DNA from: Saitoella complicata NRRL Y-17804
Lineage: Eukaryota; Ascomycota; Saitoellomycetes; Saitoellales; Saitoellaceae
Direction: 5' to 3'
NCBI RefSeq assembly: GCF_001661265.1
Contig: NW_017566996.1
Location: forward strand, 124,001 to 188,000
Length of the DNA: 64,000 nt
Part shown: piece after piece, positions 32,870-58,154 of the stretch
How positions within the stretch are numbered: the first letter of the stretch is position 1
Layout of the letters: every line of letters begins with the position of its first letter
Made by a program: the position numbers and the translations under genes
The notes under the pieces: model-generated
Database searches by the model: none
Told to the model about the DNA's origin: nothing
What the model saw: the letters and a program-made list of their open reading frames with translations, nothing else

Positions 32870-33167
32870 CCTGTCTAGATCGCGTTTAAGGATTTTATTG
32901 GATTTGGGTGTATTTAATTAGAACTACAAGTCAACTCCCTCTGTTACTTAATTTACCGACTGCTGCGACTGCGCCTCGCGATCTGCGGGAGTACCCCTGG
33001 CAACGCATCCTAACAACCGCAGGAGCTCCTCGGCGCGCGCAAACAGAACACCAAGTCTCCCCGTCTATCCCAGGAGTCGCGGGTCGAGTCGCAGCAGTTG
33101 CATACACCACGTATACCCAAGTCAAAGCTTGGCAAGTCCCAAGGCCCCAGTACGAGCATTCCCTACA

Positions 33168-36100
33168 ATGGCGAACCGCAGGCCGGTGAACCAACAACAA
33201 CAGCATTCACAGCAAGCATACATGTCGGATGACCCCTATGCCCAGCCTTCGCAGCAGAGAAGTTACGACCAATACCATGCTCAGGTAAACGATCAGTACC
33301 AGTCATATTCCGCACACTCTGCGTATCCGCAACAGGAGAGTGCGACATACGCGTCACATCCACAGGACGGGTCGTATCATTCGGGATACGCATCGCCACA
33401 CCAAGACAACTACTACCCCTCCTCGAACCCAGCGAGTGCGGGTATGGCTTCTCAAGGCGCGTATCCCGTCGAAGCGATGCAACCCGCTTACCACTCCAAC
33501 CAACAACTCCATGCTCAGGGCGCATACCAGCTCAACGACGGCGCGAGCTTCGATGACGACTATCCTGTCGAAACACACATCCCAGTTCGAGACGAGTACT
33601 ACGGCGCCACCACGCCGAATGAGGAGGTGTACCCACTTACCACCTACCCTGCTGGCCATGGGTCGAGCGCGTATCTGCCGCCCCAGCATACACCGAGTCC
33701 GGGACCGGGGTTGAATGCTGGTCCGGGTGTGGGCGCGTTCGAGGGGTATACGGCTGGTGGGGTGAGTCGGGAGCCGAGTCCGGCGCCGTTTAGGCCTGCT
33801 GGGTTGGAGGATGACCCGCATTCACCCTTGTTGAATGCGCCATATCCCTATAACGCCGATAATCTCGATCCGGAAGGAAACGTCCGCTTCGGCGAGCCGC
33901 CACCGACGCGACAGCCGAGACGTTTCAAGACGATTAAGAGGGTCGAGTTGTACCAGGGAAACTTGGTGCTCGATTGTCCCGTCCCGTCGAAGTTGTTGCA
34001 GAAGGTTCCGAGGAGGGATGAGAGGGAGTTTACGCATATGCGATACACAGCCGCGACCTGTGATCCCGCCGACTTCAAGTCCGAGCGGTTCACATTGCGA
34101 CAGGTGTTGTACGAACAACCCCGCCACACAGAACTCTTCATCGTCATCACGATGTACAATGAAGACGAGGTATTGTTCGCGCGTACCATGCACGGTGTGA
34201 TGAAGAACATCCGACACCTCTGTTCCCGAGATCGTAGTCGGGTCTGGGGTAAAGACGGGTGGAAGAAGGTCGTGGTTTGTATCGTCTCCGATGGTCGTAC
34301 GAAGATCAACCCCCGTACACTTGCGCTATTGGCATCATTGGGAGTCTACCAAGACGGTGTCGCGAAAAACATCGTCAACGGTAAACCAGTAACCGCACAC
34401 ATCTACGAGTACACAACCCAAATCACCATCGACCCCGAACTCAACACCAAGGGAGCCGAGAAAGGCTATGTACCCGTCCAAATGCTATTCTGTCTCAAAG
34501 AGAAGAACCAGAAGAAGATTAATTCGCATCGATGGTTTTTCCAGGCTTTTGGGCCGGTGTTGAATCCGAATGTGTGTGTGCTTTTGGATGGAGGTACGAT
34601 GCCGGGACCGACAAGTATATATCATTTGTGGAAGGCATTCGATATCAATAGTAATGTCGCGGGTGCTTGTGGAGAGATCGTTGCATTGAAGGGAAAAGGA
34701 GGTGTCAATCTGTTGAACCCCCTCGTCGCCGCACAAAACTTCGAGTACAAGATGTCCAACATCCTCGACAAACCACTCGAATCCGTCTTCGGCTTCATCT
34801 CCGTCCTCCCAGGTGCATTCTCCGCATACCGCTACATCGCTCTTCAAAACGACGCAAAAGGTCAAGGACCCCTCGCGTCTTATTTCAAGGGTGAGACACT
34901 TCATGGAAGTGATGCGGGGATTTTCGAGGCGAATATGTATTTGGCTGAAGATAGGATCTTGTGCTTTGAGTTGGTTGCGAAGAGGAAGTGTGCGTGGGTT
35001 TTGCATTATGTGAAATCTGCGTATGCTGTCACTGATGTTCCGGATAAACTCCCTGAACTGATTTCGCAACGACGAAGATGGCTTAACGGATCCTTCTTTG
35101 CGGCTGTGTATGCCTTGGTCCACGCCTTTAGCATTTGGAGAAGTGATCACAGTATCTTCCGGAAACTCATGTTTCACGTGGAATTTTTGTATCAGTTCAT
35201 TTCGATGGTGTTTAGTTGGTTCGCATTGGGGAACTTCTTCCTCACGTTCGTGATCTTGACGAGTAGTTTGGCGGATTCGAGTGTGAACTTTAGTCCTGGA
35301 AAGGTGTTGTTCATTATATTTGAGTGGCTTTATGCGGCGTTGATTGTCATGTGTTTCGTGTTGTCGATGGGAAACCGTCCGCAGGGTTCGAAGTGGGCGT
35401 ATACGGGAACGGCGGTGTTCTTTGCTATTATCATGGCTTACATGATTTTTGCGTCGGGGTGGTTGTCGTATCAGGGTGTTTCTGCGACGATCGCGACTCT
35501 CAAAGCGGAGAATGCGGAGTTTGGACAGAATGCCTCTGTCACGCTCAAGGCCATCTCGGAGAACACGATCTTCCGTGATTTGGTGGTGTCGTTGCTTGCC
35601 ACCTACGGTTTGTACTTGATCTCCTCGATCATTTACTTTGAGCCTTGGCATATGATCACGAGTTTCATTCAGTATTTGTTGTTGTCGCCGTCGTACACCA
35701 ATATCCTGAACGTTTACGCGTTTTGCAATACGCATGATGTGTCCTGGGGTACGAAGGGTGATAACGGTGTCAAGACTGATCTCGGAGTCGTTAATACGCA
35801 GAAAGATGGACAAGTCGACGTTGAGATCCCGACGAAGGATGCGGATATCGATGCGGCGTACTCTGAGGCGATGGTGGTGTTGCAGCAACCCGCTCCGGAA
35901 GTCAAGCAGAAACGTGATGCGACGACAAAGCAGGAGGATTATTACAAAGCCTTCCGTACCCGCGTCGTGTTGGCGTGGATTATCTCAAACGCCGCGTTGG
36001 TGGCTGTCATTCTCAATCTTGGTAGCTCAGTCAACAGTGTCAGTATCTCGAATAGTTCGAGTGCGACGAGTGTGTACATGGCGATTTTGTTGTGGTTTGT

Positions 36101-36173
36101 TGCTGGGTTGAGTTTGTTTAGGTTTTTGGGAAGTGTGCTTTATTTGATCATTCGGATGTTCAGTGGAGAGTGA
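33168..36173 (+). CDS. Chitin synthase, division 1 (class I-III, nearest I/II)
   Basis: Plasma-membrane GT2 glycosyltransferase making chitin from UDP-GlcNAc. Single exon, 1001 residues, start [20 protein letters not shown]. Residues 1-240 are Gln/Tyr/Ser/Pro-rich and cytosolic. The catalytic core (about 245-660) shows [68 protein letters not shown], the EDR acceptor motif (about 593) and [13 protein letters not shown] (about 634). About seven transmembrane helices follow, with [14 protein letters not shown] between them and the last two at the C-terminus after a Lys/Asp/Glu-rich loop. The [20 protein letters not shown] segment is closest to classes I/II. Length and motif set are normal, so it looks active. 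Confidence 0.97.
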
Positions 36174-38227: not shown

Positions 38228-40665
38228 ATGGCACGGACACCAGCAGATCAATCCAAGAAGTCCTCAAAGAGGAAGAGGTCCTCCATTGCGCCCTCAGCCG
38301 AGGCGCCTGCCGCTGCGCCTGTGGTCGAGGAGAAGGTTGTCGCAGAGGTTGAGACTGAGCCTAAAGTCACCAAGAAGGCCAGGAAGGAGGTTGATGCGTC
38401 TGCTGATGAGGGGGATGTGGATGACGCCAACTCTGTCGAGCCCGCTGATCCTGAGACTATTACCGAGGAGACCTCTGACTTGCCCGAAGCCGGTGCCCTC
38501 CTCCCTCCTCCCCAGAACGACAATCCTACCCTCTTCTCCGAGCTCAACCTTTCCCAGAATACCCTCAAGGCACTCACGGAAGACATGAAATTCGAGAAGA
38601 TGACCGATGTCCAGGCTCGTACCATTCCACCTCTCATGGCTGGTCGCGACGTCTTGGGTGCCGCGAAGACTGGTTCCGGAAAGACCTTGGCGTTCTTGAT
38701 CCCTGCTATCGAGATGCTCTACGCACTCAAGTTCAAGCCAAGAAACGGTACTGGTGTTATTGTCGTTACCCCCACCCGTGAGCTCGCTCTCCAGATTTTC
38801 GGAGTCGCAAAGGACCTCCTTGCGCACCACCACCAGACATTCGGTATCTGTATCGGAGGAGCCAACCGTCGTGCCGAGGCTGAGAAGTTGCAGAAGGGTG
38901 TCAACCTCCTCATCGCTACCCCCGGTCGTCTCCTCGATCACCTTCAGAACACCAAGGGTTTCGTTTACCGTAACTTGAAGGCCCTCGTTATCGATGAGGC
39001 TGACCGTATCTTGGAGATCGGTTTCGAGGACGAAATGAAGCAGATCATCAANNNNNNNNNNNNNNNNNNNNNNNNNNNNNNNNNNNNNNNNNNNNNNNNN
39101 NNNNNNNNNNNNNNNNNNNNNNNNNNNNNNNNNNNNNNNNNNNNNNNNNNNNNNNNNNNNNNNNNNNNNNNNNNNNNNNNNNNNCGATGTCAAAGAGATG
39201 GTTGGGACGGCGTTTGTATTTGGCGAGTAAGGCTGGGTTGTACACGAATGGTGTTATTATTCCGGTTGATGGTGGGTTTTTGTTGAGTGGACCTTCCGCT
39301 TACTAAACCAAAACGTCACGGATGTGGTAGGATACGATAGTGGATGACTAGGAATATACCAACTGGCCTTGATGGTCCACCTTTTTATGAAGTTATTTTT
39401 GCTACGGCAGCTGTGCTGCCCTTGTCCACTGTTCAACGGTACCCGTTCTTCCCACGCTCATTGAGAAAACTTCAACGAACCAACCTTGAACGTCCGTGAG
39501 TTTAACATAATCATTCGTTGATGTCTAGAAGTGTCAAGACATTTCACGGCTCATGATACATTTTCTGGACGTCTGACTCTCATTACTCTCCGGCATGCTT
39601 GGTAATTAAACCTTGTTTCGTAGCATGCATATCCGCGTTTCAAACAGACTCCCTTGCTCGAAAAAGCTTAAGATTCTTCCCAACGAGAACCGTCAGTCTA
39701 TGCTCTTCTCCGCTACCCAAACTACCAAGGTCGAGGACTTGGCAAGAATCTCGCTGCGTCCTGGTCCTCTCTACATTAACGTCGACTCTGGATCCGAAAC
39801 CTCAACCGCCAACGGTCTCGAACAGGGTTACGTCGTCTGCCCCTCCGAATCCCGTTTCCTCCTCCTCTTCTCCTTCCTCAAGCGCAACCTCAAGAAGAAA
39901 ATCATCGTCTTCTTCTCCTCCTGCAACTCCGTCAAATACCACGCCGAACTTTTAAACTACATCGACCTCCCCGTCCTCGACTTGCACGGAAAACAGAAGC
40001 AGCAGAAACGTACGAACACTTTCTTTGAGTTCTCGAATGCGGAGAGGGGTGTGTTGATTTGTACTGATGTTGCGGCTCGTGGATTGGATATCCCGGCTGT
40101 TGACTGGATTGTGCAGTACGACCCTCCGGATGATCCTCGTGATTACATTCACCGCGTCGGACGTACCGCTCGTGGTGTCGGCGCTGGCGCAAAGGGCCGT
40201 TCCCTCCTCTTCCTCCTTCCCTCCGAACTCGGATTCTTAAGATATCTCAAGGCTGCCAAGGTCCCCCTCAACGAATTCGCATTCGAGAAGACCAAGATTG
40301 CAAACGTCCAATCGCAACTCGAGAAACTCGTCTCCAAGAACTACTACCTCAACAAATCCGCCAAGGATGGATACCGTTCTTACCTCCAAGCCTACGCCTC
40401 ATACTCCCTCAAATCCATCTTCGATATCAACAAGCTCGATCTCGTTGCTGTTGGTAAGAGTTTCGGTTTCGGAGACGTACCGCCAAAGGTGAACATCACG
40501 ATTGGAGCGAGTGGTAAGACAGAATCGAAGAGGAGTGTTTCTGGGCGTCCGAGGACTGCGAGGAGAATTGAGGGTGTTGATAGGGATTCGAAGAAGGAGG
40601 TTTATGAGAAGCAGAGAAACGACGTCAGGAGGAGGGATGGGGAGGGAAAGAGCTGGTCTAAGTAG
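38228..40665 (+). CDS. HAS1: DEAD-box RNA helicase Has1 (DDX18), interrupted in this assembly
   Basis: Nucleolar ATP-dependent RNA helicase needed for 40S and 60S ribosome biogenesis. The first part, 38228-39051, has a Lys/Ser/Glu-rich tail, the Q-motif region [20 protein letters not shown], motif [10 protein letters not shown], Ia PTRELA, Ib TPGR and II DEAD, and stops at EDEMKQII plus two bases of a Lys codon. The second part, about 39673-40665, resumes exactly at [20 protein letters not shown], with motifs III SAT, V RGLDIP and [10 protein letters not shown] and the DUF4217 C-terminal region ([20 protein letters not shown]). Family alignment needs IIKILP, so no codons are missing. Between the halves are 133 N and ~490 bp containing the tail of an unrelated dehydrogenase. 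If the joint is a real intron, the acceptor is gcttaag before ATT at 39673. Product, ignoring the insert, is about 606 residues, normal for Has1. Confidence 0.9.
39052..39184. other. Assembly gap (133 N)
   Basis: Run of unknown bases inside the HAS1 locus. The exact size may be an estimate; a complete short-chain dehydrogenase (about 750 bp) would not fit. Confidence 0.99.
39185..39306 (+). pseudogene. C-terminal fragment of a short-chain dehydrogenase (SDR), frameshifted
   Basis: Directly after the gap the plus strand encodes DVKEMVGTA in one frame (from 39186) and [20 protein letters not shown], then [10 protein letters not shown] and a TAA stop, in the next frame. Together this is the classical SDR C-terminus, with the ASKAG helix, [11 protein letters not shown] strand and a short tail. 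One extra T in the ttt run at about 39210-39212 accounts for the frame change. The catalytic YxxxK half is absent (in or before the gap). It could be a contig-edge sequencing error in a functional gene from elsewhere, or a true relic. It has nothing to do with HAS1. Confidence 0.7.
39307..39672. other. Non-coding segment between SDR tail and second HAS1 part
   Basis: No gene is recognised. It is either the SDR 3' flank joined to the end of a HAS1 intron, or part of one large intron. It has an ordinary base composition. Confidence 0.4.
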
Positions 40666-56710: not shown

Positions 56711-56839
56711 GAATAGGATATCGTAGCAATTCGATAATAATCTACGAAGACGAACGGATTCCGAAGAATAAGCAATCTCGGGTCATGCAAGCCAAGGTCC
56801 AATTGCGTATACAGTCTAAAGTGCTGAGGGGAGGGGCGT

Positions 56840-57876
56840 TTAGATGGTCTTCTTCGCCTGAGCCTCAGAGAGGTATTGGCGATCATCCGCATCCCCCTCA
56901 ACCTCCTTCTGCACCTTCTCCATCTCCTTAACCTCCTTCTTCCACATCTCCACACTCATCTTCTTCTCCTTCTCAAACAACTCCTGTTCAGGCTTGCGAT
57001 AACTTGCGCCCAACCGATCCCACAACGTCGTGAACTGTCCGTAATTGTGGTTGAAGTAGAGGTGGTGGATGGTGTGGCAGGCGGCACCGTTGATGAGGGG
57101 GTTGTTGGCGATGAATTCGCCGTCGTGGATTAGAATTGTCCAGATGTTGATAAAGGTGAAGAGGGCGATGTATGAGATTTTGTGGAGGGGGAAGATGAAT
57201 GGGAAGATGTGGTACGGCAAAGACTGTCACAACCAACTGTTAGCTCCCACCCACACGAAAGTCTTTCAATTTGATGATCACAAACCTGAGCATACCCATC
57301 TAACGGGTGGAAAGCATGCGAGGCATACGGCGTAGGCACAATCCACTTGTGATGAGGTTTATGCAACCTCTTGTACACAAGCGGATGATGCAACCCCCGA
57401 TGAATCAGATAAATGAAACAATCCGTAAACATAATGAACAGCGGAAACTGCGCAAACATATACCACAACCCATACTCCTTCGGGTCCATGTACAACTTGC
57501 TGTACCCCCTCACCTCTGCCAAAAACCAGGGCGCGGTAAGGATCGCCATTTGCGGGAGTGATTCGAGGGTGAGCTTGATCTCGAGCCAGACTTGGTTTTT
57601 GAGGTATTTGGGGTGTTTGAGCGTGTCGTGGTCGAAGATGAAGACGTAGGAGAGGGAAGCGAACATGAAGTATGTCAAGATCCCAAAGATCCAGGTAATC
57701 ATGAACAGAGAGAAATACTGTCTGTGTGCATTATCCCGCGCCAATGACGACAAGGTCGAAAAGTGGTCCCGTGTCGCGGCATCGAGCGTCACATTGCTCG
57801 GCAAGTGGACGGGGAAGGCCTTGGCGTAGGCATAGTCGAACGCATAGGTATCGCAGATATCAAGAATGATATCCAT
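56840..57876 (-). CDS. ERG3: Delta7-sterol C5(6)-desaturase Erg3
   Basis: ER-membrane diiron desaturase that introduces the C5-6 double bond in ergosterol synthesis, using O2 and cytochrome b5. Exons 57876-57286 and 57223-56840 join in phase 0 over a 62-nt intron, giving 324 residues. Histidine boxes are H159RGLH163H164, H172KPHH176 and H247xxHH251xxxxH256 (HTIHHLYFNHNYGQF). Membrane spans are near 55-80, 110-122 and 140-158, with a further hydrophobic stretch at the start of exon 2. SHAFHPLDGYAQ supplies additional conserved histidine. The C-terminus is a Lys/Glu-rich cytosolic tail ending KKTI, a dilysine-type ER retrieval signal. Complete and apparently functional. Loss of Erg3 in other fungi changes azole and polyene response (established for the family). 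Confidence 0.96.
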
Positions 57877-57924
57877 GTCGAAGGAGTGACTACTTGCTGG
57901 TTAACAAGTGAAGCGAGCGACGAT

Positions 57925-57939
57925 GGGGGGGGGGGGGGG
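57925..57939 (+). repeat. Homopolymeric G15 tract
   Basis: Fifteen consecutive G between the ERG3 start and the dysferlin-domain gene. Such tracts are length-unstable and are also hard to sequence. Confidence 0.95.
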
Positions 57940-58154
57940 TATAAGTTTGAGTGTTGGACAGGTGGACTCCTGGAGTATTGTTATGGGGCGCGAGTTTGCG
58001 AGTTCGGAGTGGCGCATCGCGGCAGTACTGCCACCGACGCTGATAGCAGACAACACTACGCCAAGGGTCCAACCACTGAGCAAACAGCGCATACATCCAC
58101 GACAACGGGGCAGTTGGACGACGTATTCACTGCCTGGACAGGGCGCATACATCC

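What the first reader, a model, noticed from the sequence alone, without database searches (positions are those of the whole stretch)
39052..39672. HAS1 is split by a gap plus foreign dehydrogenase tail
Essential helicase HAS1 breaks between EDEMKQII and KILPNENR, with no residues lost, and the break contains 133 N followed by the 3' end of a same-strand short-chain dehydrogenase and about 370 bp of non-coding DNA. Explanations: scaffold misjoin, a gene nested in a HAS1 intron, or a recent insertion. The clean codon joint and a plausible acceptor (gcttaag at 39672) fit an intron; the SDR tail fits a chimera or nested gene.
Basis: partly seen in the sequence, partly recalled or inferred. Interest (0 to 1): 0.7.

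Follow-up and report, generated by a model that had tools for sequence, protein, structure and literature searches.

The report
Helicase gene split by assembly chimera
An essential yeast helicase gene looks interrupted by a gap and a piece of another gene, but that piece is a virtually exact copy of DNA lying elsewhere on the same scaffold, so the break is most likely an error in the genome assembly and not biology.

Summary
HAS1 (38228-40665, +) stops at 39051, is followed by 133 N, then by the tail of a short-chain dehydrogenase (SDR) and 364 nt of non-coding DNA, and resumes at 39670/39671. Leaving out exactly 620 nt gives an unbroken conserved HAS1 (QIIKILPNEN); no second HAS1 was found in the genome.

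New result: 39185-39670 matches C5:450758-451242 of the same genome in 485 of 486 alignment columns. That place holds a complete, gap-free SDR frame. The copy carries only its last 39 codons, split between frames by a one-base length difference 29-31 nt from the gap, and ends 364 nt past the stop. So the segment is neither a nested gene nor native intron sequence; its 'acceptor' AAG arises where SDR-downstream DNA meets HAS1 coding DNA. It touches the only N run in the 267 kb of this scaffold examined. Control stretches showed no comparable near-identical repeat.

Best explanation: a scaffold or contig-end chimera (about 0.86). Not excluded: a real, very recent insertion, which would have to be spliced out to leave HAS1 working. 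Raw reads, or the independent assembly of what is probably the same species (Saitoella complicata, inferred, not tested), would decide.

The parts
38228..39051 (+). HAS1 5' part (274 complete codons plus AA of the Lys codon), DEAD domain
   Evidence: Pfam DEAD PF00270, 138.7 bits; aligned with HAS1 chains
39052..39184 (.). run of 133 N, the only one in the window
   Evidence: the only N run in the 40 records (332,882 bases, overlaps included) scanned, where L009 and L012 show the same place
39185..39306 (+). copy of the last 39 codons and stop of an SDR gene, with a one-base length difference in a T run at 39213-39215 that splits it between two frames
   Evidence: donor C5:450758 onward
39307..39670 (+). 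copy of the 364 nt downstream of the SDR stop, ending one base after the palindrome AAGCTT
39671..40665 (+). HAS1 3' part: Helicase_C and CTE_SPB4 domains, to the stop
   Evidence: Pfam PF00271 93.4 bits and PF13959 58.8 bits

Best explanation
An assembly chimera at a gap. The contig that begins HAS1's 3' part carries at its left end about 486 nt that belong to the SDR locus at C5:450758-451242. It was set against the contig that ends HAS1's 5' part, with 133 N between. In the living genome HAS1 is presumably uninterrupted here or carries an ordinary short intron, and the SDR is single. Shown: the duplication in the assembly, its right end point, the intact donor, no second HAS1 found. Inferred: that the copy is not present in the cell. 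Not known: how the wrong join arose (chimeric molecule, wrong gap patch or other).
For: (1) 485 of 486 columns identical to a gap-free intact locus on the same scaffold. (2) The copy directly touches the only N run seen in 267,001 distinct bases of C5. (3) Its only difference is one base in a T run, 29-31 nt from the gap edge, where contig-end errors are expected. (4) No second HAS1 was found: the next best protein match is 43% identical, and flanking DNA finds itself only, apart from a 70% match at C16 for the left flank. HAS1 is essential in S. cerevisiae (established knowledge, not from a call), so an unspliced insertion would be lethal in a haploid. (5) Near-identical copies are absent in the controls: in 258 kb of C5 compared with itself (the donor is not in that stretch) the three pairs listed were 176 nt at 90.9%, 347 nt at 74.6% and 56 nt at 92.9%; 8,000 bases searched in the whole genome gave only themselves; another 8,000 gave themselves plus two diverged pieces at 89 and 82% in C17.
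Against: No reads were available. Both HAS1 edges meet to the base, as in a clean insertion too. Donor and copy lie on the same scaffold and strand; a random chimera would hit the same scaffold only about 4% of the time (590,873 of 14,122,262 bases). The AAGCTT palindrome at the right edge is unexplained. A published table gives 35 contigs and 35 scaffolds for Saitoella complicata (PMC4392786, passages), i.e. apparently no gaps; if this is that assembly, the N run has another origin (for instance later masking). Only about 2% of the genome was looked at for N runs.
Confidence: 0.86

Rival explanations
1. A real, very recent insertion: a DNA fragment of at least 486 nt copied from the SDR locus was captured at a break in HAS1, and is either spliced out or present in only part of the cells or one allele.
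For: Clean edges with AA on both sides and no HAS1 base lost; donor on the same scaffold and strand; no poly(A) at the right edge, so a DNA copy rather than a retrocopy.
Against: It breaks the only HAS1 found. The right edge is a poor splice acceptor without a near branch site. No other near-identical copy in the control stretches. It happens to border the only N run seen.
Confidence: 0.09
2. HAS1 has a native intron at this codon whose sequence lies in the gap and was lost or displaced by the wrong SDR piece (a mixture of the reader's ideas).
For: The break falls exactly at one codon, and AAG|ATT fits an exon joint if one G lies in the N run; a neighbouring gene of the donor shows that this genome has short introns, 54 nt at L019:5274-5327.
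Against: The last 486 nt before HAS1 resumes are SDR-locus DNA up to 39670, so no native intron end is visible.
Confidence: 0.04
3. An SDR gene nested in a HAS1 intron.
For: Same strand, SDR tail with stop.
Against: Only 39 of 347 SDR codons are present, split between two frames; 133 N cannot hold the rest; the full frame is elsewhere.
Confidence: 0.01

Closest known systems
Contig-end chimera / misjoin at a scaffold gap in draft genomes (general knowledge)
   Same: Near-identical second copy of a unique locus, cut off at an N run, breaking a conserved gene for which no other copy was found
   Different: The wrong piece is long (486 nt) and its other edge meets HAS1 to the base
Capture of genomic fragments at double-strand breaks (general knowledge)
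   Same: Fragment of a gene plus flanking DNA set into another gene without loss of target bases
   Different: Left edge not visible; essential target gene; no read support
HAS1/DDX18 DEAD-box rRNA helicases
   Same: Both halves align along their length with HAS1 chains of solved structures
   Different: Interrupted in this assembly at one Lys codon

Membership tests
HAS1/DDX18 helicase | DEAD, Helicase_C and CTE domains, best match to HAS1 chains | tested here: met
   Pfam; phmmer best hits has1 824.5 bits and HAS1 817.1 bits
Assembly chimera | Near-identical copy of an intact locus elsewhere | tested here: met
Assembly chimera | Adjacent assembly gap | tested here: inconclusive
   An N run is adjacent; whether it is a scaffold gap or a later mask could not be told
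Assembly chimera | No reads crossing the joint | not testable with these tools
   no reads held
Nested gene | Complete gene inside an intron of the host | tested here: not met
   only the last 39 SDR codons present
Spliceosomal intron | 5' splice site | not testable with these tools
   would lie in the N run
Spliceosomal intron | Branch site close to an AG acceptor | tested here: inconclusive
   nearest CTRAY has its A 96 nt before 39672 (nearest CTNAY 90 nt) and the acceptor is AAG; compared with one intron of this genome only

The most novel reading that the evidence does not exclude
A newborn intron: a just-captured fragment of the SDR gene and its downstream DNA sits inside the essential HAS1 and is spliced out, with the acceptor created by the insertion joint itself.
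Probability: 0.03. Interest if true: 0.65.

Novelty: not a real feature. Interest (0 to 1): 0.1.

Why it matters
As an artefact it matters only for annotation: HAS1 would be called as two genes or with a false intron, and the SDR tail as a false gene. If real, it would be a rare case of an essential gene tolerating a fresh insertion by splicing it out, which bears on how introns arise.

Tried and rejected
Nested SDR gene: rejected, see above. Retrocopy of SDR mRNA: no poly(A) at the right edge. A microhomology at the hidden left edge: the best match within 300 nt upstream in the donor is 5 nt, and the one nearest the place expected from 133 N is 4 nt; random 300-nt windows of the donor locus give 4 nt or more in 1,648 of 2,000 draws and 5 nt or more in 579, so no signal. 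Restriction-site ligation: AAGCTT at 39664-39669 and CTTAAG at 39667-39672 are palindromes at the edge, but 6-base palindromes occur at 0.0138 per base and the idea came after seeing them; left as unexplained. A translation of the donor in the wrong frame was of no use. Literature: searches for Saitoella complicata with 'genome' and 'scaffolds' (8 papers), 'draft genome' (14 papers) and 'AllPathsLG' (none). Of these I read PMC4447899 whole and passages of PMC4392786, PMC7882544, PMC7036362 and PMC5639578; what I saw does not mention this locus; the rest I saw as listings. A search on misassembly terms was seen as a listing only.

Full report
What is there. The window lies at C5:124001-188000 of a genome of 14,122,262 bases in 34 contigs. 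HAS1 starts at 38228 and its first 274 codons run to 39049; AA follows at 39050-39051, then 133 N to 39184. From 39185 comes the tail of a short-chain dehydrogenase with a stop at 39304-39306, then 364 nt, and HAS1 goes on from 39670/39671 to its stop at 40663-40665. The two halves carry DEAD, and Helicase_C plus CTE_SPB4. Joined, they align along their length with HAS1 chains of solved structures, best with the one named has1 in 8esq (824.5 bits) and with HAS1 in 11aa (817.1 bits), with no residue gained or lost at the joint in any of the four alignments printed (the DDX18 chain lacks one residue a few positions further on). Leaving out exactly 620 nt keeps the frame, in three equivalent placements, because AA stands at both edges; 619 or 621 does not.

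Where the extra DNA comes from. A whole-genome search with 39185-39672 gives two places: itself, and C5:450758-451242 (E 1.8e-252). Aligned, 485 of 486 columns agree; the one difference is an extra T in a run at 39213-39215. At the second place, read over 9,001 bases without N, there is an intact SDR frame of 347 codons from its first ATG (L019:3336-4376; adh_short 154 bits). The tail in the window matches no Pfam family by itself; the tail found eight places: the donor at 100%, the window at 86% (because of the change of frame), and six others at 47-54%. The copy starts, where the gap ends, 39 codons before the stop, and leaves off 364 nt past it, between the SDR and the next gene. That next gene has a cupredoxin-like protein (name from recall) and an intron of 54 nt with CTAAC before CAG.

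What this excludes. The SDR is not a gene nested in HAS1: most of it is missing and the full frame is elsewhere. The 486 nt are not a native intron: they are the same as ordinary SDR-downstream DNA, and the acceptor-like AAG forms only where HAS1 coding sequence follows. The nearest CTRAY has its A 96 nt before 39672, the nearest CTNAY 90 nt (motifs from recall); this is compared with a single intron of this genome, so it is a weak point by itself.

Artefact or insertion. No second HAS1 was found: the next protein match is 43% identical, and the flanking DNA finds itself, with one further 70% match (C16) for the left flank. An unspliced insertion in an essential gene of a haploid yeast is not expected to live (essential role: established for S. 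cerevisiae, not from a call; ploidy here unknown). The extra DNA touches the only N run among 40 records and 332,882 bases scanned, overlaps included; 267,001 of these are distinct bases of this scaffold. Its one difference from the donor lies 29-31 nt from that gap. Control stretches show how unusual such a copy is: in 258 kb of C5 against itself, without the donor region, three pairs appear (90.9% over 176 nt, 74.6% over 347 nt, 92.9% over 56 nt); 8,000 bases of the window give only themselves; another 8,000 give two pieces at 89 and 82% in C17, which largely overlap reading frames like a sterol desaturase (name from recall); 7,501 bases round the donor give only themselves and the HAS1 place. 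All this fits a contig-end chimera. Against it stand the same scaffold and strand for donor and copy, and the exact HAS1 edges, which fit a clean insertion as well. Without reads the point stays inferred.

Which organism. By size and contig number the genome resembles Saitoella complicata: 14.14 Mb with 35 contigs, 35 scaffolds and 7,034 gene models in a table of PMC4392786 (passages). HAS1's best match among solved chains is the has1 of entry 8esq, which I take from recall to be fission yeast, also Taphrinomycotina. The species was not tested. PMC4447899 (whole text) describes an independent assembly, BACD03, with mate pairs of 3-15 kb, against which the locus should be checked.

Verdict. Observation confirmed; explanation an assembly chimera, 0.86; interest low.

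Noticed in passing
window 56830-57196 and 57577-57998: Two pieces match C17:212036-212391 and C17:212389-212779 at 89 and 82%; they largely overlap minus-strand frames (56840-57226, 57130-57900) that look like a C-5 sterol desaturase or fatty acid hydroxylase (name from recall), so probably a diverged paralogue pair.
   Followed up: partly
window 39664-39672: Two overlapping six-base palindromes, AAGCTT and CTTAAG, sit exactly at the right edge of the foreign segment; AAGCTT is also present at the donor, CTTAAG is made by the joint.
   Followed up: partly
window 34491-34831 (C5:158491-158831) and C5:96755-97096: A 347-nt pair at 74.6% within the scaffold; the window copy lies in the long frame 32952-36173, which looks like a chitin synthase (name from recall), so probably two paralogues.
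   Followed up: no
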